Below, piece by piece: positions 377 to 8,978 of a DNA stretch of 9,168 nucleotides. Below the pieces are notes generated by a model. It was not told the DNA's origin and searched no databases. It saw nothing but the letters and a program-made list of their open reading frames with translations. The DNA comes from Candidatus Mcinerneyibacteriota bacterium (GTDB lineage: Bacteria > AUK180 > JAQVHJ01): contig DAOVMD010000093.1 of assembly GCA_030630935.1 (NCBI GenBank), forward strand, positions 1 to 9,168, written 5' to 3'. A program made the position numbers and the translations under genes. Position 1 is the first letter of the stretch, and every line of letters starts with the position of its first letter.

Positions 377-1363
377 ATGAAGAGAATCTTAAAGTTATTC
401 AAGTACATGCTTCTATTAGGTTTCATGGGCTTTATCATTTTAATAGGGTTGATGAATGGATTCAAGTTATTTTTAAAGAAGCCTGAGGTCAAGGTTCCGG
501 ATGTAAATGGTTTACCAAAGAAGGCAGCGATTAAGACACTTAAGGGTAGTGGTTTAAAGTTTCAAATAACATATCAGGATGACCTTAATCTTCCGATTGA
601 CACAGTAATTATTCAGAAGCCTTCTCCCGGTGCGATTGTAAAGAAGGGCAGAAATATTCAGCTTTATTTATCCCGTGGTTTTGGAAATATTGAAGTTCCG
701 GATTTAACCAGTCAGGATCTTTTTAATGCCGAGCTAGTTCTTGAGGAGAGTAATCTTAAGATGGGCAATCGAATCAAGATCAGAACCAACTACGTTGCCA
801 AGGGTTTAATTGTTGCTCAAAATCCTGAACCGAAATCTATAGTTTCAAAGGGTGCATCAATTGATTTGATTATCAATGAAGGTTCGAAAGACAGAAATAT
901 CTATGTTAATAATTTTGTTGGTCAGCGAATTGAATTTGTTAGTGATTTCCGAAATAATATTCCCCTTTTAATTGAGAATGAAATTGACACAATGACATTT
1001 GGAATAATTACTGATCAATCTTTACCTTTAGGAACGATTGTCAATATTAATTCACCTATTAGTTTTGATTTTAACCCTGAATATATTGACCCGAATGATA
1101 CAGAAGCTGTTCCAATAATCACACATATTGATGATCCTGAACCTATGAGAGATCACAGGTATATATATTTTTTAGTGCCACCGGGATTTGCTGAAAGAAC
1201 TCTTGATGTATTTTTAATAACTGAAAGTACAAGGGAAAAGATTTTTCATGGTAAGGTGAAACCCGGAAGTAAATTTGAGAAGATAATTTATTTCCCCGGC
1301 AGCCAAACCGGATTAATTTATTTTTACTTAGACGGGAAATTAGAGGATTACAAAAGGTTATGA
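377..1363 (+). CDS. Membrane-anchored PASTA-domain protein
   Basis: PASTA domains bind peptidoglycan stem peptides or muropeptides and usually sit on Ser/Thr kinases or penicillin-binding proteins. This 328-residue protein has neither enzyme domain. It has a short basic N-terminus, one membrane helix at about 11-29, then a PASTA repeat at about 36-100 (VPDVNG, then IIQKPSPGAIVKKG) and a second at about 104-168 (VPDLTS, then VAQNPEPKSIVSKG). A degenerate third PASTA-like unit spans about 173-232. The C-terminal part (about 258-322) looks like a beta domain resembling the tails of some PASTA kinases. Topology predicts the repeats in the periplasm. No Shine-Dalgarno precedes the ATG, and the promoter position implies a leaderless mRNA. 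Its TGA overlaps the PBP1A ATG (ATGA), so the two are probably translationally coupled and may act together. All 15 lysines in the first 100 residues use AAG. Confidence 0.88.
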   Translation: MKRILKLFKYMLLLGFMGFIILIGLMNGFKLFLKKPEVKVPDVNGLPKKAAIKTLKGSGLKFQITYQDDLNLPIDTVIIQKPSPGAIVKKGRNIQLYLSRGFGNIEVPDLTSQDLFNAELVLEESNLKMGNRIKIRTNYVAKGLIVAQNPEPKSIVSKGASIDLIINEGSKDRNIYVNNFVGQRIEFVSDFRNNIPLLIENEIDTMTFGIITDQSLPLGTIVNINSPISFDFNPEYIDPNDTEAVPIITHIDDPEPMRDHRYIYFLVPPGFAERTLDVFLITESTREKIFHGKVKPGSKFEKIIYFPGSQTGLIYFYLDGKLEDYKRL

Positions 1364-3534
1364 AAAAGGTACTGAAATTTTTTAAGAGATTATCGTTGTT
1401 TATTATGGTTAGTTTTTTCCTTGGAATAGTATTAGCGTTTGCTTTGATTCAGATTTCAAAGGGTATGAAATTTGATGTAGAGCTTGATACATTTGCTCCT
1501 AATGTTCTTACCAGAATTTATGACAGGAACGGAGTATTATTAGCAGAATTAGTTGCGGAGAAACGTGATATTGTTCCAATTGACGATATCCCTGACAATA
1601 TGATCTATGCAATTGTTGCAGCTGAGGATAAACATTTCTTTGAGCATAACGGTTTTGATATAATTGCCATGGGCAGGGCGACCTTACGTAATATTAAGGC
1701 AATGAAATTTAAAGAGGGCGGGAGTACAATTTCCCAGCAGCTTGCTAAGAACATGACTTTAAAGGCACAGAAGCATATGTCCCGAAAGGTTAAAGAGGCT
1801 TTTTTCACATTAAAAATAGAGAAGAAGTATTCAAAGCGTGAGATCATTGAGTTATACTTAAACCAGGTATATTTTGGTCGTGTTTATGGAGTTCAGGAGG
1901 CTGCATGTTATTATTTTGGTAAAGATGCAAAGGAACTTAACTTAGCTGAATGTTCTTTAATTGCCGGTATCACCCGGCTTCCCGGTTATTATAATCCTTA
2001 TAAACATTTTGATAATGCAAAGTTCCGTCAAAAATATGTACTCAAGAGAATGGTTGAGGATGGTTATATCACTTTCAATGAAGCGGAAGCCGCATTTAAT
2101 CAGCCGCTTGAGATTAAGAGGAAGGATAAGGTTGAGACAAAAGCCCCGTATTTCATCGATTATGTTAAGCGCTACTTAATTGGGAAATATGGAGTTGCAA
2201 AGACTTTTAATGGTGGTTTAATCGTTAAGACTACCCTTGACATCCGGATTCAGGAAAAGGCTGAAGATGCATTAAAAATTGCAAATGAGAGAAGGTTAGA
2301 AGAAGAGCTTGACGAGATTCAGGGTGGTATCATTGTGATGGATCCGAATAATGGTCAGATTTTAGCCATGGTTGGGGGAACAGACTTTAAATTATCACAA
2401 TGGAATCGAGCAGTTCAAGCCCCCCGTCAGCCTGGGTCATTATTTAAGGTTTTTTTATATACAGCATATCTTGATAATGGCATGGGAACACTTTCTGATC
2501 TTTGGTATGACACTCCGATTGCATTCCCGGATATAAAAGTTAAGAGACCGGAAAAGGAAGATGATAATGATACTGAAACCGGAACAATTACCCCGGATGA
2601 CCTGAAGAATTTAACTCCTGCTGAAATCAAGGACCTTGATCTTTCCGAAACTCTTACCAGCTCAATTGTCGGGGATACTGAATCAGATGAGATTGAAGAT
2701 GAGATTGATTTCTATATCCCGACCAATTATCAACATTTTTCAGGCGTTGTAAATATTCGAAGAGCCATTCAATCATCTATTAATTTAGTTGCAATTAAAG
2801 TCACATATAGTATTGGTCCTGGGACTGTTGTTTCATATGCTCATAGGATGGGGATTAAATCCCCCTTAAAACCTGTTATTACAGTTGCATTAGGTGCGAA
2901 TGAAGTGAACCTTCTCGAAATAGTCAGTGCGGTATCCTGTTTACCCACAGGCGGAATAAGGAATGAACCAACTGCAATCCTCCAGGTTCGGGATTTCAAA
3001 GGAAATATCCATGAAAAATATATCCCGCATAAGAAGAGAGTACTTGATGAGAAGACAGCTTTCCTAATGAATTTTGTTTTGATGGGTGTTGTGAAACGTG
3101 GATCAGGTTGGCGTGCTAATATCGCAGGACATGAGATTGCTGGGAAAACAGGAACAACAAATAATTTCACAGATGCTTGGTTTGTTGGTTATACCCCGGA
3201 TTATATCTGCGGAATCTATATAGGTAATGATGACCCGTCAGTTTCTTTAGGTGATAAGCAAGCCGGGGGTAGAATTGCAGCTCCTATCTGGAAAGATGTG
3301 ATGAAAGATTTTCTTGCAGAGATTGAAGAACCGAAAAAATTTAATGTTCCTGATGGAATAGTATTTAAAGTAATTGATCCGAAAACCGGATTACTTGCTG
3401 TTCCTGAGCTTGAAAAGAAATATACAGAAGCCTATATAAAAGGTACAGAGCCAAGTAAATACTCTGACCCAAGGAAAAAACCCGAGCTAAATACTCTGGA
3501 TAAAAAGATTGAGTTTTTTAGATTGAAACCGTAA
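1360..3534 (+). CDS. Class A penicillin-binding protein (PBP1A family)
   Basis: Bifunctional peptidoglycan synthase: an N-terminal GT51 transglycosylase polymerises lipid II and a C-terminal transpeptidase cross-links stem peptides in the periplasm. A basic start and membrane helix (about 11-32) anchor it. GT51 motifs are clear: EDKHFFEHNGFD at 89-100, EGGSTISQQLAKN at 119-131 and the IELYLNQVYFG region at 163-173. The transpeptidase carries the SxxK motif at S360-K363 (within QPGSLFK), SIN at 473-475 and KTGT at 596-599, so both active sites look intact. The length, 724 residues, is normal to slightly long. The segment 400-450, between SxxK and SxN, is strongly acidic (19 Asp/Glu in 51 residues) and looks like an insertion. 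The start overlaps the PASTA stop by ATGA; AAAGG lies very close to the ATG, so reinitiation is likely. The protein has no PASTA domain of its own, which makes the adjacent PASTA protein a natural partner by inference. Confidence 0.96.
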   Translation: MKKVLKFFKRLSLFIMVSFFLGIVLAFALIQISKGMKFDVELDTFAPNVLTRIYDRNGVLLAELVAEKRDIVPIDDIPDNMIYAIVAAEDKHFFEHNGFDIIAMGRATLRNIKAMKFKEGGSTISQQLAKNMTLKAQKHMSRKVKEAFFTLKIEKKYSKREIIELYLNQVYFGRVYGVQEAACYYFGKDAKELNLAECSLIAGITRLPGYYNPYKHFDNAKFRQKYVLKRMVEDGYITFNEAEAAFNQPLEIKRKDKVETKAPYFIDYVKRYLIGKYGVAKTFNGGLIVKTTLDIRIQEKAEDALKIANERRLEEELDEIQGGIIVMDPNNGQILAMVGGTDFKLSQWNRAVQAPRQPGSLFKVFLYTAYLDNGMGTLSDLWYDTPIAFPDIKVKRPEKEDDNDTETGTITPDDLKNLTPAEIKDLDLSETLTSSIVGDTESDEIEDEIDFYIPTNYQHFSGVVNIRRAIQSSINLVAIKVTYSIGPGTVVSYAHRMGIKSPLKPVITVALGANEVNLLEIVSAVSCLPTGGIRNEPTAILQVRDFKGNIHEKYIPHKKRVLDEKTAFLMNFVLMGVVKRGSGWRANIAGHEIAGKTGTTNNFTDAWFVGYTPDYICGIYIGNDDPSVSLGDKQAGGRIAAPIWKDVMKDFLAEIEEPKKFNVPDGIVFKVIDPKTGLLAVPELEKKYTEAYIKGTEPSKYSDPRKKPELNTLDKKIEFFRLKP

Positions 3535-3580
3535 GCTTCATTAAAAATTGAAGTGAACGATTTATTTAAATAGGAGACAA

Positions 3581-5536
3581 ATGAGAAGAGCATATTATTT
3601 AATTTTTCTACTTGTATTTGGTATTTTGTTCTTGAGTTCTTGCGGTAAGGATGAACCTGATCTTTCCAACCTAACTCCAAAGCAGAAGAGGTTACTGGAA
3701 AAGGAATTAAAAGATATCAATGAGAAATTACAGACCCCGCCTGAAGAACCTTTAGATAAGCTTGAAAAGATTTCACAGAAGATTAAGTTAAATATTAGGA
3801 AGAGTGAAGTTCTATATAAATTAGGACAGACCAGGGCTTCAGAAGATTTAGTCAAGGACTTATTATCGAAGCATCCGCATCATCCCGAAATCTTAATGAA
3901 AAAAGTTTTTAAGCAATTTGAAGATGGAAAGAAAGACTCAGCAATTAAAATTTTAAAGGAATTGATTAATAGTTTCCCTGAATATTATCCTTCCTATGCC
4001 GTTTATGGTATAATCCTGTACCAGGAGAATAAACCTAAAGAGGCATATACAATTCTGCGTAAGGCAGATGAACTTGAGGGTATTACAATTAATATAAGTG
4101 AGTATAAGACCAGCGATTCAGAACTCGAATTCACATCTGTAAAATTACGAAGAAGGTTTTATTTTCATAAAAGAAAAGTTAAGAGAATGAATAATATGGA
4201 TCTGTATGGAAATTTTAATTATAACCTTTTTCATTATACTCTTGCGAAGTTATATTTTAATAAGAAATGGTATAAATCATCGAGGGTTCAGTGTAGAAAG
4301 ATTCTGATATTTGATAATCAGGATATTGAGACTCTCCTTTTAATATCGGAAGATTACCAGAGATTAGGTGAGCCCGAACGCGCGATTGCAATTCTTGAAT
4401 ATACGACTAATTTGCATGACACAAAGGAAAATGCCTATTTCTCTTTATGTAAAATGTCATACCGAGTCAAGGACTATATAAAAGCAAAGAGATTTTTAGA
4501 GATTTATATTGAGAAATTTCCTGAATCAGAGAATATTAACCAGGTAAAAGAAATGCTTGCAGATATTTATAATGAATTTTCAATATTTGAAAAAGCAGAA
4601 ACTATCTATACCGATTTAATCAAAAAGACTAATAAGGATGAGACAATTTTATGTCTTGCAAAATTATACATTAAATGGGGAAAGCGGGATAAGGCCGTGA
4701 GACTTTTAAAGAAATTATCAAAGAAGAAAATTTCAGGATATAAAGCTCAACTGATTTTAGCTGAGCTTGCGGTTGAATCAGATGATTATAAAAGCAGTTG
4801 GAAGATTCTGAAAAATTTAAAGAAGATTGATTTAGAGGAGCCGGAAGCTTATCATCTTTTAGCTCAATTTTATTATAGATTATTTAAGGAGGAGAAGCAT
4901 GAATCTTTCTTTAGTATTTCAAGGAAAGAGATCAAGGATTATTATTTTGTAAAGACAACAGAACAATTACCTAAGCCTGTTGATTCTAAACCCAACACAC
5001 TACCTGATAAAATTGAAGAAGAACCCAGTCCATTTAGAGATCATCCGCCAAAGAATGAGAAGGAGATCGAAGACGAAAAAATAAAATCCGAATCTTACGA
5101 TCAAATTATTTTTGATGATAATTTAATCCTTGACCTTGCAATTATTGAAGAGAGGAATGCTGTGGAGCGGGACAAGAACAATTCATTATTCATATTTACT
5201 TTAGGGATTTATTTATATGAAAAGGGTCGGATTAAATCTGAAGATTTTAACAGGGAATTTTTTTCATACAGGAAAACGAGTCCATATAATAACCCGCACC
5301 TTCGTCTTGGAAAAGAAGAGGGGGATGAACTTTTGGATGAGTCAATTAAACATTTAAAGTTTGCCCTGAAATCAGACCCTAAAAATATTGAATACATAAA
5401 AGCACTTGCCTGGGCATATTACCTGAGGAGAAAATTATCAAGTGCTTATGATAGTTTCCAAAAAGTTTTGAAGTATGACCCGTTTGATATTGAAGTTATC
5501 TTCGCATTAAAAGATTTAAAAGAAAGATTAAAATAA
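3581..5536 (+). CDS. TPR-repeat lipoprotein
   Basis: Predicted exported lipoprotein of 651 residues built mostly from helical TPR-type hairpins, a scaffold for protein-protein contacts. The signal peptide has arginines at 2-3, a hydrophobic core and a lipobox LSSC with the acylated cysteine at 21. TPR-like pairs can be seen at about 74-165, 215-350 and 352-440. The best-formed ones are near the C-terminus (about 584-640, with spacing typical of ALKSDPKNIEYIKALAWAYY). A charged, proline-rich linker at about 462-505 splits the protein into a long N-terminal and a short C-terminal superhelix. A good Shine-Dalgarno, AGGAG at 3572-3576, lies 4 bases before the ATG. The gap to the PBP1A gene is 46 bp with no terminator, so co-transcription is likely. 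Partner and exact role are unknown; a scaffold for envelope synthesis is only inferred from the neighbours. Confidence 0.88.
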   Translation: MRRAYYLIFLLVFGILFLSSCGKDEPDLSNLTPKQKRLLEKELKDINEKLQTPPEEPLDKLEKISQKIKLNIRKSEVLYKLGQTRASEDLVKDLLSKHPHHPEILMKKVFKQFEDGKKDSAIKILKELINSFPEYYPSYAVYGIILYQENKPKEAYTILRKADELEGITINISEYKTSDSELEFTSVKLRRRFYFHKRKVKRMNNMDLYGNFNYNLFHYTLAKLYFNKKWYKSSRVQCRKILIFDNQDIETLLLISEDYQRLGEPERAIAILEYTTNLHDTKENAYFSLCKMSYRVKDYIKAKRFLEIYIEKFPESENINQVKEMLADIYNEFSIFEKAETIYTDLIKKTNKDETILCLAKLYIKWGKRDKAVRLLKKLSKKKISGYKAQLILAELAVESDDYKSSWKILKNLKKIDLEEPEAYHLLAQFYYRLFKEEKHESFFSISRKEIKDYYFVKTTEQLPKPVDSKPNTLPDKIEEEPSPFRDHPPKNEKEIEDEKIKSESYDQIIFDDNLILDLAIIEERNAVERDKNNSLFIFTLGIYLYEKGRIKSEDFNREFFSYRKTSPYNNPHLRLGKEEGDELLDESIKHLKFALKSDPKNIEYIKALAWAYYLRRKLSSAYDSFQKVLKYDPFDIEVIFALKDLKERLK

Positions 5537-5837
5537 GTGGTGATGATTAAATATAATTCAGTTCTTAAATGTATTTCATTTTAATATGAAGTTATATGGA
5601 GATTCATCCTTATTTATCAAGTGTGTCCCATTAATCACTCGTTACGAAATTCAATTCAAGTATAAAGACAATCGCAACCATATCAATGACTGAAAGTCCT
5701 GACAAAATGAAGGAAACTTACCCATCTGAAGTAAACATAATACTGAAACAAAATGTAAATTCCGTCTCCCTAAAATCAAGAGAAAAAGCTCTTGACATTA
5801 AGTTAAGAAAGTTGTATAATTTAATTAAGGAGAAATA
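5537..5837. other. Gap between the TPR gene and the restriction block
   Basis: About 300 bases without a convincing gene. No strong terminator follows the TPR gene; the best candidate, TTCAT/ATGAA around 5577-5590, is weak and lacks a T-run. The right end carries a perfect consensus promoter (5792-5820). A 50-codon open frame (5686-5838) covers that promoter. I see no trace of methyltransferase motifs that would represent the missing front of the next gene. Confidence 0.6.
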
Positions 5838-5838
5838 A
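5686..5838 (+). CDS. Small ORF, 50 residues, probably not a gene
   Basis: The ATG at 5686 opens a lysine-rich 50-codon frame whose TAA shares its last base with the next ATG (TAATG). That overlap would suit translational coupling, but no Shine-Dalgarno precedes the ATG, the frame is open further upstream without another start, and the consensus promoter of the next gene lies inside it. I recognise no family. It may be a decayed fragment or chance. Confidence 0.18.
   Translation: MTESPDKMKETYPSEVNIILKQNVNSVSLKSREKALDIKLRKLYNLIKEK
5792..5820 (+). promoter_or_regulatory. Perfect consensus sigma70-type promoter of the restriction block
   Basis: TTGACA at 5792-5797 and TATAAT at 5815-5820 are both exact consensus hexamers with the ideal 17-bp spacing. 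The predicted start near 5827 coincides with the AAGGAG Shine-Dalgarno at 5827-5832, 5 bases before the ATG at 5838, giving an mRNA leader of only about 11 bases. No operator-like palindrome overlaps it, so expression would appear constitutive. Confidence 0.85.
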
Positions 5839-6512
5839 TGAAGCAACTTGGAAAATGTTCATTCACAAGCATTCATAACGGCAAATCAAATAATTCACTG
5901 AGACATCTTGATGAATTTCCTATTTTAATTAGATACAATAATGCTCTAGATATTATTCATAAAATCAGAAATAAAAGTAATAGTTTCTTATCAGAAATGG
6001 TTTCATCTATTAACTTATTTGGTTTTGAAAGTTCATACAGGGGAAGTTCTAAAAAAGGTGATAATTCTATTGCCTTATTAAGTAGTAAAGGCAAAGGTTT
6101 TATGGATTTCAATATAAGTTCAGCTCAAGAATTAATAGGTAAGTATAAAGTTGTTATAAGTAGAACTATTTCTGAGCATGCTGGTGAGCATGGAAAGGAT
6201 GGAAAATTTAAAGTATTAGCCAAAACTATGATTCTTTCTAAAAATGAAATTTGTTCACATTCATATTTAGTAATAGGTACCTTTGATAATAAAAAAGAGG
6301 CTTTATTTTTAGAAAATTATTTACGAACAAAATTTGTAAGATTTTTAATTTTACAAACGATTTCAGGGATTGATTTAAGTAAAGAAAGATTTATGTTCGT
6401 TCCACTCCAGGACTTTTCCCAACCCTGGACAGATGAAAAACTGTACAAAAAATACGATTTGACCATAGAAGAGAAAGATTACATAGAATCAATGATTAGA
6501 TCGATGGAATAG
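5838..6512 (+). CDS. C-terminal (target-recognition) fragment of an Eco57I-like restriction-modification enzyme
   Basis: From memory of the family, the sequence matches the tail of large Eco57I-type methyltransferase/restriction proteins. Markers are FTSIHNGKS at 9-17, HLDEFPILIRYNNALDIIHKI at 23-43, ISEHAGE at 111-117, SYLVIGTFD at 142-150 and the end motif FVPLQDFSQPWTDEKLYKKY at 187-206 followed by YIESMIR. This portion is thought to recognise the DNA target. The catalytic methyltransferase core, including the SAM-binding and NPPY motifs, should lie N-terminal to it and is absent. Only 224 residues remain, and an in-frame TAA stands at 5826-5828, three codons before the ATG. The fragment nevertheless has a strong AAGGAG site, a perfect promoter and no internal stop. 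It could be an expressed remnant or a repurposed specificity subunit. Lysine codons are 21 AAA to 3 AAG, unlike the PASTA gene. The next gene follows after 3 bases. Confidence 0.75.
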   Translation: MKQLGKCSFTSIHNGKSNNSLRHLDEFPILIRYNNALDIIHKIRNKSNSFLSEMVSSINLFGFESSYRGSSKKGDNSIALLSSKGKGFMDFNISSAQELIGKYKVVISRTISEHAGEHGKDGKFKVLAKTMILSKNEICSHSYLVIGTFDNKKEALFLENYLRTKFVRFLILQTISGIDLSKERFMFVPLQDFSQPWTDEKLYKKYDLTIEEKDYIESMIRSME

Positions 6513-6515
6513 AGT

Positions 6516-7565
6516 ATGAATAAAAAAGAGATACAAAAAGACGGCCTGATACTTAACGATATTAAAACGCTTATAGAGGAGAGCCGGCAACAGCTTGCTG
6601 TTTTGGTGAACTCAACTATGACAATGCTCTACTGGAATATAGGTAAACGAATCAAAGAAGAAATTTTAGGTAACAAAAGGGCAGAATACGGCAAAAAGAT
6701 AATTGTTGAATTAAGTAAACAATTATCCCTGGAATACGGCAAAGGCTGGAGCGAAAAGAACCTACGACACATGATGAGATTTGCAGAGGTTTTCCCTGAA
6801 AAAGAGATTGTCTTATCACTGATTAGACAATTGAGTTGGACACATATTTTAGCAATTATTCCCATTGAAGACCCACTTAAAAGAGAATTTTACATCGAAA
6901 TGTGCAAAATGGAAAAGTGGAGTGTTCGTACATTTAGAGAGCGTATCAACTCCATGCTTTACGAAAGAACAGCCATTAGTAAAAAACCGGAAAAAACTAT
7001 TAAAGTCGATTTAGACTTACTTAAAAACGAAGAGCAGTTAAGTCCCGATTTGGTATTCAGAGACCCCTATTTTTTAAATTTTTTAGGATTACACGACAGC
7101 TATTCCGAAAGGGATTTGGAAAATGCGATTTTAGCAGAATTGCAACAGTTTATTATTGAATTAGGAACTGACTTTGCCTTTTTGGCTCGTCAGAAACGAA
7201 TTACAATAGATAGCGAAGACTACTATATCGATTTATTGTTTTACCACCGTAAGCTAAAAAGTCTCATTGCCATAGATTTAAAATTAGGTAAATTTAAAGC
7301 TTCCGATAAAGGACAGATGGAACTCTATCTGGCCTGGTTAGAAAAACATGAAATGGTGGAAGGAGAAAGCAGTCCTTTGGGATTAATTCTTTGTGCTACG
7401 AAAAATGAAGAGCATATAGAACTAATGCAACTTGATAAAAGCAATATCAAAATTGCAGAATACCTTACTAAATTACCCGACATGAAATTATTGGCAAACA
7501 AACTGCATCAATCGATTGAACGAGCTAAAAACAGATTAGCACAAAAAGAGGCAAACAATGAGTAA
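6516..7565 (+). CDS. DUF1016/YhcG-family PD-(D/E)XK nuclease
   Basis: Complete member of the DUF1016 family (349 residues, usual family length), predicted to be a DNA endonuclease often found beside restriction-modification genes. The helical N-terminal domain (about 10-150) contains the characteristic MTMLYWNIGKRI (35-46), YGKGWSEKNLRHMMRFAEVFP (74-94) and RQLSWTHI (104-111). The C-terminal nuclease domain (about 175-335) has the expected acidic residue in LENAILAEL (201-209), D239 in YYIDLLFYH, D254-L-K256 in IDLKLGKF, and GQMELYL (266-272) with Q267. The catalytic set therefore looks intact. Only 3 bases separate it from the preceding stop and no good Shine-Dalgarno is visible, so translational coupling is likely. 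Its own end overlaps the next start by 8 bases. Lysine codons are 33 AAA to 4 AAG, which with the truncated flanking genes supports acquisition by horizontal transfer. Confidence 0.92.
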   Translation: MNKKEIQKDGLILNDIKTLIEESRQQLAVLVNSTMTMLYWNIGKRIKEEILGNKRAEYGKKIIVELSKQLSLEYGKGWSEKNLRHMMRFAEVFPEKEIVLSLIRQLSWTHILAIIPIEDPLKREFYIEMCKMEKWSVRTFRERINSMLYERTAISKKPEKTIKVDLDLLKNEEQLSPDLVFRDPYFLNFLGLHDSYSERDLENAILAELQQFIIELGTDFAFLARQKRITIDSEDYYIDLLFYHRKLKSLIAIDLKLGKFKASDKGQMELYLAWLEKHEMVEGESSPLGLILCATKNEEHIELMQLDKSNIKIAEYLTKLPDMKLLANKLHQSIERAKNRLAQKEANNE

Positions 7566-7677
7566 AGATTTCTTCCCTAAACGTCCGAAGGTTAATCCAA
7601 CTATTTATGCTTATAAAATACCAAACACACCAAACCGTAAGGGTTTATTAAAAATTGGTTTTACCAATAGAAAATAG
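7558..7677 (+). pseudogene. Truncated start of a GIY-YIG/helicase restriction protein
   Basis: Thirty-nine codons beginning MSKDFFPKRPKVNPTIYAY and ending GLLKIGFTNRK before TAG 7675-7677. This is the opening of a GIY-YIG nuclease domain: the TIYAY and LLKIGFT strands correspond to the GIY and YIG positions as I know them from GIY-YIG/DEAD-helicase restriction proteins, which normally continue for many hundreds of residues. The rest of the nuclease domain and the whole helicase are absent. A good Shine-Dalgarno, AGAGG at 7547-7551, lies 6 bases before the ATG, and the 8-base overlap with the DUF1016 gene shows the original operon arrangement. The coding match ends directly against a 12-bp palindrome, which suggests a deletion or insertion junction. 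Confidence 0.72.
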
Positions 7678-7689
7678 GGTGCCGGCACC
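7678..7689. repeat. Perfect 12-bp palindrome at the break of the truncated gene
   Basis: GGTGCC at 7678-7683 is mirrored by GGCACC at 7684-7689. With one G-T pair (7677/7690) the symmetry extends outward through 7673-7694. It is far more GC-rich than its surroundings and begins immediately after the TAG of the truncated restriction gene. It has no loop, so it is a better candidate for a protein-binding site, an element end or a recombination scar than for a hairpin terminator. Confidence 0.7.
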
Positions 7690-7715
7690 TTATTCTAAAT
7701 TTAGCCATGAAAACG

Positions 7716-7734
7716 CCCCGAAGAAAAAACGGGG
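7716..7734. terminator. GC-rich stem-loop, terminator-like mainly on the - strand
   Basis: CCCCG at 7716-7720 pairs with CGGGG at 7730-7734 around a 9-base purine loop; a G-T pair (7715/7735) may extend it. On the + strand no T-run follows. On the - strand the stem is followed by GTTTTC, a weak T-rich tail, although no - strand gene is nearby. It may be a degenerate bidirectional terminator or part of a short repeated element with the palindrome upstream. Confidence 0.4.
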
Positions 7735-7756
7735 TAAACTCCAAGCATGAAATAGT

Positions 7757-7786
7757 TTTGCTTTGCTTTGCAAGATCTAATGACAA
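7757..7786. repeat. TTTGC triplication and possible dispersed intergenic repeat
   Basis: TTTGC occurs three times in a row at 7757-7771, followed by AAGATCTAATGACA. Read on the - strand this gives TGTCATT, then GCAAAGCAAAGCAAAA. It resembles an AT-rich version of the common bacterial intergenic repeat beginning GTCATTGCGAGCGAAGCG. The resemblance is from memory and the copy would be degenerate. Confidence 0.35.
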
Positions 7787-7821
7787 ATAGTGTTGCTACA
7801 ATTTCCTATACAAATTTTTTA

Positions 7822-7850
7822 TTGACTTTAATTTGATAATAGTATATAAT
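7822..7850 (+). promoter_or_regulatory. Sigma70-type promoter of the NHL-M23 lipoprotein genes
   Basis: TTGACT at 7822-7827 (one mismatch) and a perfect TATAAT at 7845-7850 are separated by 17 bp. The predicted start near 7857 gives a leader of about 114 bases before the ATG at 7971. That leader contains a small ORF and two hairpins. The promoter separates the NHL-M23 pair from the restriction block. Confidence 0.75.
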
Positions 7851-7865
7851 TAAGATATTAAAGAT

Positions 7866-7887
7866 AAGGATTACATGAAAAGTCCTT
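7866..7887 (+). promoter_or_regulatory. Leader hairpin followed by a U-rich run (possible attenuator)
   Basis: AAGGATT at 7866-7872 can pair with AGTCCTT at 7881-7887 (seven pairs, one G-T) around an 8-base loop. Bases 7886-7895 downstream are T-rich, giving an intrinsic-terminator-like shape close to the predicted transcription start. The left arm contains the AAGGA Shine-Dalgarno of the small ORF at 7875, so ribosome binding and stem formation would compete. The stem is short and AT-rich, so this is only suggestive. Confidence 0.33.
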
Positions 7888-7907
7888 TTTATTATTGTAT
7901 TTATTGA
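7875..7907 (+). CDS. Possible 10-residue leader peptide (MKSPFYYCIY)
   Basis: A complete ATG-to-TGA frame sits in the leader of the NHL gene. AAGGA at 7866-7870, 4 bases before the ATG, is a good ribosome site. Three of ten residues are tyrosine, two of them adjacent. The frame overlaps the right arm of the hairpin at 7866-7887, so its translation could change the leader fold. Chance occurrence cannot be excluded. Confidence 0.3.
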   Translation: MKSPFYYCIY

Positions 7908-7916
7908 TAAAAATCA

Positions 7917-7946
7917 GGTTTCTGTGAATAAATATTTCACAGTACC
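7917..7946 (+). promoter_or_regulatory. Hairpin just upstream of the NHL gene ribosome site
   Basis: CTGTGAA at 7922-7928 pairs perfectly with TTCACAG at 7936-7942 around a 7-base loop. GGT at 7917-7919 can add three pairs with ACC at 7944-7946 after a small internal loop. The Shine-Dalgarno TGAGGT (7959-7964) remains free about 12 bases downstream. It may be an mRNA-stabilising or regulatory stem, or a DNA operator. Confidence 0.45.
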
Positions 7947-7970
7947 CCAAATAAATATTGAGGTATCTTT

Positions 7971-8978
7971 ATGATTAAAAAAATGATTTCAATAGCTCTG
8001 TTGTCATTATCAATTTTATTTATTCTTAATGGTTGTACACCACATCAACCGGTAAAGGATATAGATAAATTTGCCCTTCAAAAAAAGGAGATTGAAAAGA
8101 GATTTAAGCATGTGAAAGTAGTCAGGTTAGCGGATATAAATAATAGACCCTTATCGGAACCTAAGGGTTTAACCTTTACACCTGATAATTACCTTTTAAT
8201 TGTTGAGAGTGAAAACAATAAAATCCATAGACATGATACAGAAGGAAATTATCTGACTGAGTTCACTATCAAGTTTGACCAGGAGGATTTCCTCTCTTTT
8301 CCTGAGAGCATTGCATACTCACCTGATAAAACTTTTTTCATCTCAGACAGCTCCAATTCGCGCGTCTTAAAAGTCAATAGATACGGTAAGGTTCTTAAAG
8401 AGATAAAGTCAGATGACCCTACCGGTTTATTTATGGAGTCCAAATTAAAAGACGGAGCCGGTATAAATTTAAATCTTCCTTCAGGCATTACGATTTCACC
8501 AAAGGGAGAGATATTTATTGCTGATACATATAATAACAGAATTGTTCAAGTTTCATTATCAGGCGAATTAATGTGGACTTTTGGTGATACAAAGAATTCA
8601 CAAGGGAAGCTTTTTCATCCGCGAGATATTGCAGTGGATCTAAAAGGATTACTATATGTAACAGATGATGAGAATCAGGTAAAGATTATAAAAAAGAAAA
8701 AAGGGATTATCGGAATGTTCGGTGGAGAGGGTTCAGGACCCGGGAAATTTAAAAGACCAAAAGGGTTAACAATCTGGCATGATAAATATATAGTTGTATG
8801 TGACCCTTTGAATCAAAGGATTCAATTCTTTACCAAGGAAGGAATTTTTATAAAGTCGATCTCAAAAATAGGGAGAGTAAATTTAAAATTTCCTTATGCA
8901 GTTAAGACTGATGTTTTCCAAAATTTATATATAATTGATAAAGAACTTGCAATTCTATTTAAGGTATATGAATTTTAA
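7971..8978 (+). CDS. NHL-repeat beta-propeller lipoprotein
   Basis: Exported lipoprotein of 335 residues. A lysine-containing start, hydrophobic core and lipobox LNGC place the acylated cysteine at 22. The remainder is a chain of NHL repeats, each with a P-x-G/S-I/L-x-phi-x-P/D opening and a phi-x-V/I-x-D/E-x-x-N-x-R/K centre: about 63-97 (VESENNKIHRHD), 109-143 (FISDSSNSRVLKVN), 168-205 (FIADTYNNRIVQVS), 215-250, 261-296 (VVCDPLNQRIQFF) and 307-335. Six units fit a closed six-bladed propeller, a fold used for binding proteins or ligands; no enzyme signature is visible. The ATG has a good Shine-Dalgarno (GAGG at 7960-7963, 7 bases away). Its end overlaps the M23 start by 11 bases, so the two products are probably made together. 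Ligand and pathway are unknown. Confidence 0.9.
   Translation: MIKKMISIALLSLSILFILNGCTPHQPVKDIDKFALQKKEIEKRFKHVKVVRLADINNRPLSEPKGLTFTPDNYLLIVESENNKIHRHDTEGNYLTEFTIKFDQEDFLSFPESIAYSPDKTFFISDSSNSRVLKVNRYGKVLKEIKSDDPTGLFMESKLKDGAGINLNLPSGITISPKGEIFIADTYNNRIVQVSLSGELMWTFGDTKNSQGKLFHPRDIAVDLKGLLYVTDDENQVKIIKKKKGIIGMFGGEGSGPGKFKRPKGLTIWHDKYIVVCDPLNQRIQFFTKEGIFIKSISKIGRVNLKFPYAVKTDVFQNLYIIDKELAILFKVYEF

What the first reader, a model, noticed from the sequence alone, without database searches (positions are those of the whole stretch)
5838..7677. Restriction island reduced to recognition domain + DUF1016 nuclease + nuclease stub
Three consecutive frames keep the order and tight spacing of a restriction operon, but the first lacks its whole methyltransferase core (only the C-terminal recognition part remains), the last stops after 39 codons, and the central DUF1016 nuclease is intact with all catalytic-looking residues. 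The surviving frames have no internal stops. Either this is a very recent double deletion, or a methylase-free recognition-plus-nuclease pair is being kept as a reduced defence or regulatory module. The first has clear precedents; the second would be new.
Basis: partly seen in the sequence, partly recalled or inferred. Interest (0 to 1): 0.7.

Follow-up and report, generated by a model that had tools for sequence, protein, structure and literature searches.

The report
Decayed DrdVI-type restriction island with passenger nuclease
This is the leftover of a three-gene bacterial restriction system that lost its methylase core and almost all of its cutting enzyme, leaving one self-contained DNA-recognition domain and an intact, independently mobile nuclease gene; it is ordinary gene decay, with a published precedent, rather than a new kind of defence.

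Summary
Frame 5838-6512 is exactly the C-terminal DNA-recognition domain of an Eco57I-type N6-adenine methyltransferase. Frame 6516-7565 is an intact DUF1016/YhcG nuclease. The 39-codon frame 7558-7677 is the start of a GIY-YIG/helicase restriction gene. Together they are the middle of an M1-M2-(accessory)-R operon of the DrdVI type. Operons with DUF1016 in the same slot and the methylase core present exist in a Saprospiraceae and an Ignavibacteria genome, with the same 8-nt overlap (ATGAGTAA) between DUF1016 and R. The nearest relative lacks the island; only 22 bp separate its flanking genes. Of 102 oriented loci with this recognition domain, 99 have the methylase core and 3 are cut by a contig end, so the truncated form is seen only here. 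The 3' break abuts an interspersed repeat, and a second DUF1016-bearing restriction operon in this genome is broken at the same repeat. The 5' break fused the recognition domain in frame to a consensus promoter, ribosome site and ATG, so domain and nuclease are probably still expressed. Best reading: a fairly recent relic with DUF1016 as self-sufficient passenger. A kept 'recognition + nuclease' module is not supported but not excluded.

The parts
5537..7970 (.). Whole island: 2,434 bp between the TPR gene (stop 5536) and the NHL-repeat lipoprotein gene (start 7971); absent in the nearest relative, where 22 bp separate the two genes
5612..5778 (.). Interspersed host repeats (pieces 5612-5649 and 5725-5778, many copies in the genome); they cover part of the 50-aa ORF 5686-5838, which is therefore probably not a gene
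5792..5820 (+). Perfect sigma-70-type promoter (TTGACA-17-TATAAT), followed by AGGAG and ATG at 5838
   Evidence: about 0.03 such sites expected per window
5838..6512 (+). Complete target-recognition domain of an M2.DrdVI-like (Eco57I-type) N6-adenine methyltransferase, without the catalytic core
6516..7565 (+). Intact DUF1016/YhcG PD-(D/E)XK nuclease gene in the accessory slot between M2 and R
7558..7677 (+). 5' stub (39 codons) of the DrdVI-like GIY-YIG/helicase restriction gene; overlaps DUF1016 by 8 nt (ATGAGTAA) exactly as in L123 and L129
7675..7692 (.). TAGGGTGCCGGCACC(TTA) palindromic interspersed repeat at the 3' break; its TAG supplies the stop codon of the stub
7687..7950 (.). Further interspersed repeats (7687-7752, about 7812-7902, 7879-7950) between the break and the NHL gene

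Best explanation
A DrdVI-type restriction-modification operon (M1, M2 with C-terminal recognition domain, accessory DUF1016, GIY-YIG/helicase R) entered this lineage between two housekeeping genes and has since been cut down at both ends. One deletion removed M1 and the catalytic core of M2 and left the recognition domain fused in frame behind a promoter, ribosome site and ATG. The other removed about 95% of R, ending at an interspersed repeat. The remnant can neither methylate nor cut as a restriction system. DUF1016 is a passenger gene that also lives alone and in other restriction operons, and is probably still expressed and possibly active by itself; the recognition domain is most likely a leftover that has not yet had time to decay. 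Shown: homology, operon layout, empty site, absence of the missing parts from the assembly, uniqueness of the truncation. Inferred: order and mechanism of the deletions, expression, and lack of function of the recognition fragment.
For: DUF1016 in the same slot of operons that keep the methylase core: L123 Saprospiraceae (M2 7164-8657, DUF1016 8664-9680, R 9673-12168) and L129 Ignavibacteria (DUF1016 6087-7106, R from 7099, split into two frames), both with the same 8-nt ATGAGTAA overlap as the window. Of 102 loci with the recognition domain, 99 have the methylase core upstream and the 3 others are cut by the contig end. NPPY/NPPF lies in the same frame even in the shortest intact forms. Empty site in G001: TPR stop 3408, NHL start 3431. 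No other copy of the methylase core or R in the genome. The 3' break coincides with an interspersed repeat (29 sites against 3 of the control pattern), and a type III mod next to another DUF1016 in the same genome is broken at the same repeat (only profile positions 133-214 of 221 of N6_N4_Mtase remain). A decayed DrdVI-like system with a truncated GIY-YIG gene is published for Bibersteinia trehalosi (PMC4996451). Close DUF1016 relatives (56-59%) stand without restriction genes on Singulisphaera, Spirosoma, Rufibacter and Sulfurimonas plasmids.
Against: The recognition frame shows little decay: it misses 1 of 28 positions conserved at 90% and 7 of 48 at 80% (17th worst of 91). The fusion left a complete domain behind a perfect promoter, ribosome site and start codon, which is tidy for random decay. 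The genome is a draft MAG in 471 contigs (80% complete), so the missing genes could be elsewhere or lost by misassembly at repeats.
Confidence: 0.85

Rival explanations
1. A reduced module under selection: the free recognition domain binds its DNA target and tethers or regulates the DUF1016 nuclease, giving a methylase-free defence or regulatory pair.
For: Both frames are open and undecayed; the recognition fragment is a complete confident fold; a 12/12 promoter and ribosome site stand right before it; the two genes are 3 nt apart.
Against: No other genome shows it (0 of 102 loci). DUF1016 occurs without any recognition domain, and the same slot in relatives holds many unrelated genes, so the neighbourhood is inherited rather than chosen. 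Self-DNA would be unprotected without a methylase, if the nuclease were aimed at the same site.
Confidence: 0.05
2. Assembly artefact: the sample holds an intact operon, and the assembler skipped parts of it through the repeats that flank the island.
For: Draft MAG with 471 contigs; both flanks are made of repeats with tens of copies; the 3' break lies on a repeat.
Against: The contig runs through from a syntenic gene on one side to a syntenic gene on the other. The 5' break lies at a gene start rather than on a repeat. The missing pieces are on no other contig.
Confidence: 0.08
3. Natural split system: methylase core and recognition domain are encoded on separate polypeptides in this subfamily, and the core lies elsewhere.
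For: Some relatives carry a short M2 frame with only about 110 aa before the recognition domain (L009, L076, L147).
Against: Even those frames contain the catalytic NPPY/NPPF motif; the window's does not, no core is found in the genome, and the R gene is also broken.
Confidence: 0.02

Closest known systems
DrdVI restriction-modification system (M1.DrdVI, M2.DrdVI, GIY-YIG/translocase DrdVI; Deinococcus wulumuqiensis 479, pDrdVI; GCAGCC; PMC6430315)
   Same: Recognition domain of M2 (29% identity to L014) and, by its place in the layout, the start of the R gene; same gene order
   Different: Window lacks M1, the M2 catalytic core and about 95% of R; carries DUF1016 between M2 and R
Decayed DrdVI-like system of Bibersteinia trehalosi (Btr188ORF1790 / Btr188ORF1760; PMC4996451)
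   Same: Fragmented M genes, GIY-YIG gene cut to its N-terminal fragment, small frames in between
   Different: There a piece similar to both M1 and M2 remains; no DUF1016 is mentioned in the passage read
DUF1016 / YhcG family (PF17761 + PF06250; PADLOC candidate PDC-S02)
   Same: Full-length, 1e-132 to a PDC-S02 model
   Different: Nothing; ordinary member. The function of the family is not established in the sources read here
M1-M2-DUF1016-R operons L123 (Saprospiraceae) and L129 (Ignavibacteria)
   Same: Same slot for DUF1016 and same 8-nt overlap with R
   Different: Methylase core present; L123's R is a full-length frame, L129's is split into two frames; DUF1016 only 33-38% identical, so probably a separate acquisition

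Membership tests
DrdVI-type three-gene restriction-modification system | M1 (small N6-adenine methylase) upstream | tested here: not met
   Nothing but repeats and a promoter between the TPR gene and 5838
DrdVI-type three-gene restriction-modification system | M2 catalytic core with NPPY motif | tested here: not met
   Absent from 5838-6512; absent elsewhere in the 80% complete assembly
DrdVI-type three-gene restriction-modification system | M2 C-terminal recognition domain | tested here: met
   About 29-57% identity over residues 5-224; fold like the recognition parts of M.BseCI, BrxX, BpuSI, CamA (Z about 8)
DrdVI-type three-gene restriction-modification system | Full-length GIY-YIG + helicase R gene | tested here: not met
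   Only the first 39 codons, against about 830-850 in relatives
DrdVI-type three-gene restriction-modification system | Gene order M2 - (accessory) - R with tight spacing | tested here: met
   3 nt and -8 nt; the same -8 nt as L123 and L129
DrdVI-type three-gene restriction-modification system | Methylation and cleavage activity | not testable with these tools
   Needs methylome data or an assay; expected absent
DUF1016 / YhcG nuclease | DUF1016_N and YhcG_C domains over full length | tested here: met
   PF17761 1-137/137 and PF06250 3-156/157
DUF1016 / YhcG nuclease | PD-(D/E)XK residues (motif described in PMC1189080) | tested here: met
   YIDLLFYH...IDLKLGK read from the sequence; same D-L-K form in the C348 paralogue and in L123
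DUF1016 / YhcG nuclease | Nuclease activity | not testable with these tools
   Only predicted for the family (PMC1189080)

The most novel reading that the evidence does not exclude
The truncation created a stable two-gene module in which a free, expressed recognition domain aims or restrains the DUF1016 nuclease, a methylase-free derivative of a restriction operon.
Probability: 0.05. Interest if true: 0.6.

Novelty: new member of a known kind. Interest (0 to 1): 0.17.

Why it matters
It is one more clear case of restriction-modification decay in which the mobile accessory nuclease outlives the system that carried it, with the empty site and less damaged counterparts to compare. A more useful by-product is that the slot between methylase and restriction gene in DrdVI-type operons holds a changing set of passenger genes (BRO, RhuM, Fic, Schlafen/AlbA_2, HEPN, HicB, DUF1016 and others), which could be surveyed for defence add-ons.

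Tried and rejected
A genome-collection scan with the single protein found nothing; an alignment of distant relatives had no searchable stretch; an alignment of closer relatives gave 264 encoded relatives, of which the best 80 were kept. Pfam and NCBIfam do not recognise the recognition fragment; PADLOC type IIG models and the fold do. No PDB sequence matches it. The 50-aa ORF 5686-5838 was considered as a possible extra operon gene and rejected: part of it is an interspersed repeat and the promoter lies inside it. dN/dS: no close relative exists for the recognition frame. For DUF1016 against its C348 paralogue NG86 gives dN 0.36 and dS 3.8, saturated, so it speaks only for long-term constraint before the truncation. 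Two literature searches for accessory genes inside type I operons (RhuM, DUF1016) found nothing on point.

Full report
WHAT IS THERE. The window is the whole contig C5 (9,168 bp) of a draft genome of 3.16 Mb in 471 contigs, 80% complete. A PASTA protein, a PBP1A-like protein and a TPR lipoprotein lie on the left; an NHL-repeat lipoprotein and the start of a peptidase-like lipoprotein lie on the right (the names of the PBP1A-like, TPR and peptidase-like genes are read from the sequences).

IDENTITY OF THE FRAMES. Frame 5838-6512 matches, over residues 5-224, the C-terminal part of proteins annotated 'Eco57I restriction-modification methylase domain-containing protein' (38% in Variovorax and Enterococcus plasmids; up to 57% in genome contigs). 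PADLOC places it at the end of a type IIG profile (1145-1359 of 1359). AlphaFold with 71 sequences gives a complete, confident domain (pLDDT 91.7, pTM 0.88). It aligns with the recognition regions of CamA (Foldseek E 7e-4), M.BseCI, BrxX and BpuSI (Z about 8, 3.8-6.0 A over 184-203 residues). Z values near 8 alone would be modest; that every leading row is an adenine methyltransferase or type IIG enzyme, together with the sequence match, makes the assignment safe. Frame 6516-7565 is a full-length DUF1016/YhcG protein and matches the PADLOC candidate family PDC-S02 at 1e-132. Frame 7558-7677 matches the first 38-39 residues of GIY-YIG/helicase proteins (56% to L004, 48% to L007), right up to its stop (alignment).

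THE PARENT SYSTEM. In relatives these parts belong to an operon M1 (about 220 aa) - M2 (about 500 aa, NPPY core plus recognition domain) - R (about 830-850 aa, T5orf172/GIY-YIG plus ResIII helicase). The one with published methylation data is DrdVI of Deinococcus wulumuqiensis (L014, pDrdVI, M1-2.DrdVI, GCAGCC; PMC6430315). In 30 of 79 loci with R downstream, more than 300 bp lie between M2 and R. That slot holds BRO, RhuM, a RhuM-Fic fusion, Schlafen/AlbA_2, AAA-DUF4143, HEPN, HicB, DUF488, DUF2971, a kinase, PDDEXK_3, S23-like and other proteins. DUF1016 is in the slot in L123 (Saprospiraceae) and L129 (Ignavibacteria), and both share the 8-nt overlap ATGAGTAA with R that the window has. So the window keeps the exact junctions M2/DUF1016 and DUF1016/R of a real operon. 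L123's R is a full-length frame; L129's is split into two.

HOW IT WAS CUT. In-frame codons before 5838 hit a stop at once. Homology starts at residue 4-5, just past the YFLW region of the methylase core. A 12/12 consensus promoter (5792-5820; about 0.03 expected per window), AGGAG and the ATG stand directly before it. The simplest reading, which is inference, is that the deletion joined the operon's own or a host promoter and start codon to the recognition domain. On the right, the stub ends in TAGGGTGCCGGCACC, whose TAG is the stop; the pattern AGGGTGCYGGNM occurs 29 times in the genome against 3 for the reversed control. Both flanks are built of repeats with tens of copies. GC3 is 0.21 in the recognition frame, 0.23 in the 39-codon stub and 0.35 in DUF1016, which fits a separate origin of DUF1016.

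EMPTY SITE AND MISSING PARTS. In G001, the only other genome of the family held, the TPR gene ends at 3408 and the NHL gene begins at 3431 of L067. No copy of the methylase core or of R is found elsewhere in G000; with 80% completeness this is suggestive only.

IS THE PAIR KEPT? Among 102 oriented loci with the recognition domain, 99 have the methylase core upstream; the remaining three (L125, L154, L160) begin at the contig end. Even the shortest intact frames hold NPPY/NPPF; L105 has the core in the same frame behind one stop codon, itself a likely broken gene. So the core-less form is seen only here, within the best 80 of 264 genome-collection matches plus the plasmid and viral loci examined. 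Conservation gives no strong sign of decay: 1 of 28 positions conserved at 90% and 7 of 48 at 80% are changed (17th worst of 91 sequences), so the truncation is recent or the fragment is constrained; one genome cannot tell. DUF1016 needs no partner: relatives at 56-59% identity stand without restriction genes on four plasmids and inside a type I operon in Nostoc, and the family is described as riding on mobile elements (PMC4316617).

A PARALLEL IN THE SAME GENOME. Contig C348 has a second DUF1016 (58-61% identical) between a type III mod and res. That mod too lacks its 5' half (profile positions 133-214 of 221) and breaks at the same AGGGTGCCGG repeat. Two DUF1016-bearing restriction operons with broken methylases and intact DUF1016 in one genome fit general decay of restriction systems with a surviving passenger.

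VERDICT. Observation confirmed; decay reading supported (0.85); kept-module reading unsupported but open (0.05). Published precedent: the fragmented DrdVI-like system of Bibersteinia trehalosi with a truncated GIY-YIG gene (PMC4996451).

Noticed in passing
G000 contigs, 29 pattern sites (L016-L044); window 7675-7692: A constant core (A/T)T-AGGGTGCCGG(C/T)C is often followed by a heptamer in imperfect tandem duplicate that differs between copies: (TCTGTCT)2, (TATGACT)2, (TCTTACT)2, (CTTTACT)2-like. Origin unknown; it resembles heptanucleotide STRR repeats (from memory) and sits at broken gene ends in two restriction islands.
   Followed up: partly
L062 (G000:C348) 573-5412: Type III restriction operon with DUF1016 between mod and res; mod has lost its 5' half at an AGGGTGCCGG repeat. 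A roughly 340-bp stretch there (5366-5709) has inverted AGGGTGC ends, MITE-like, and a near copy of one end lies on C343.
   Followed up: partly
L004, L075, L091, L096, L099, L109, L115, L123, L129, L131, L137, L144, L146, L147, L149, L150, L152, L157, L158, L162, L164: The space between M2 and R of DrdVI-type operons is an accessory slot with many interchangeable genes (BRO, RhuM, Fic, Schlafen/AlbA_2, HEPN, HicB, DUF488, kinase, PDDEXK_3, DUF1016), filled in 30 of 79 loci; from memory a similar set is seen inside type I operons.
   Followed up: partly
L105 about 7870-8000: In an unnamed bacterium the M2 gene carries an in-frame stop 41 codons before the recognition domain, a likely second decaying system of this type.
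   Followed up: no
L083 1015-2115: An M2-like methylase fragment (NPPY core plus recognition domain, no M1 and no R found) lies upstream of terminase-like genes in a viral contig.
   Followed up: no
window 7822-7850: An 11/12 sigma-70-type promoter (TTGACT-17-TATAAT) lies within the repeat-rich stretch before the NHL gene, so the island's flank may have renewed the promoter of its downstream neighbour.
   Followed up: no
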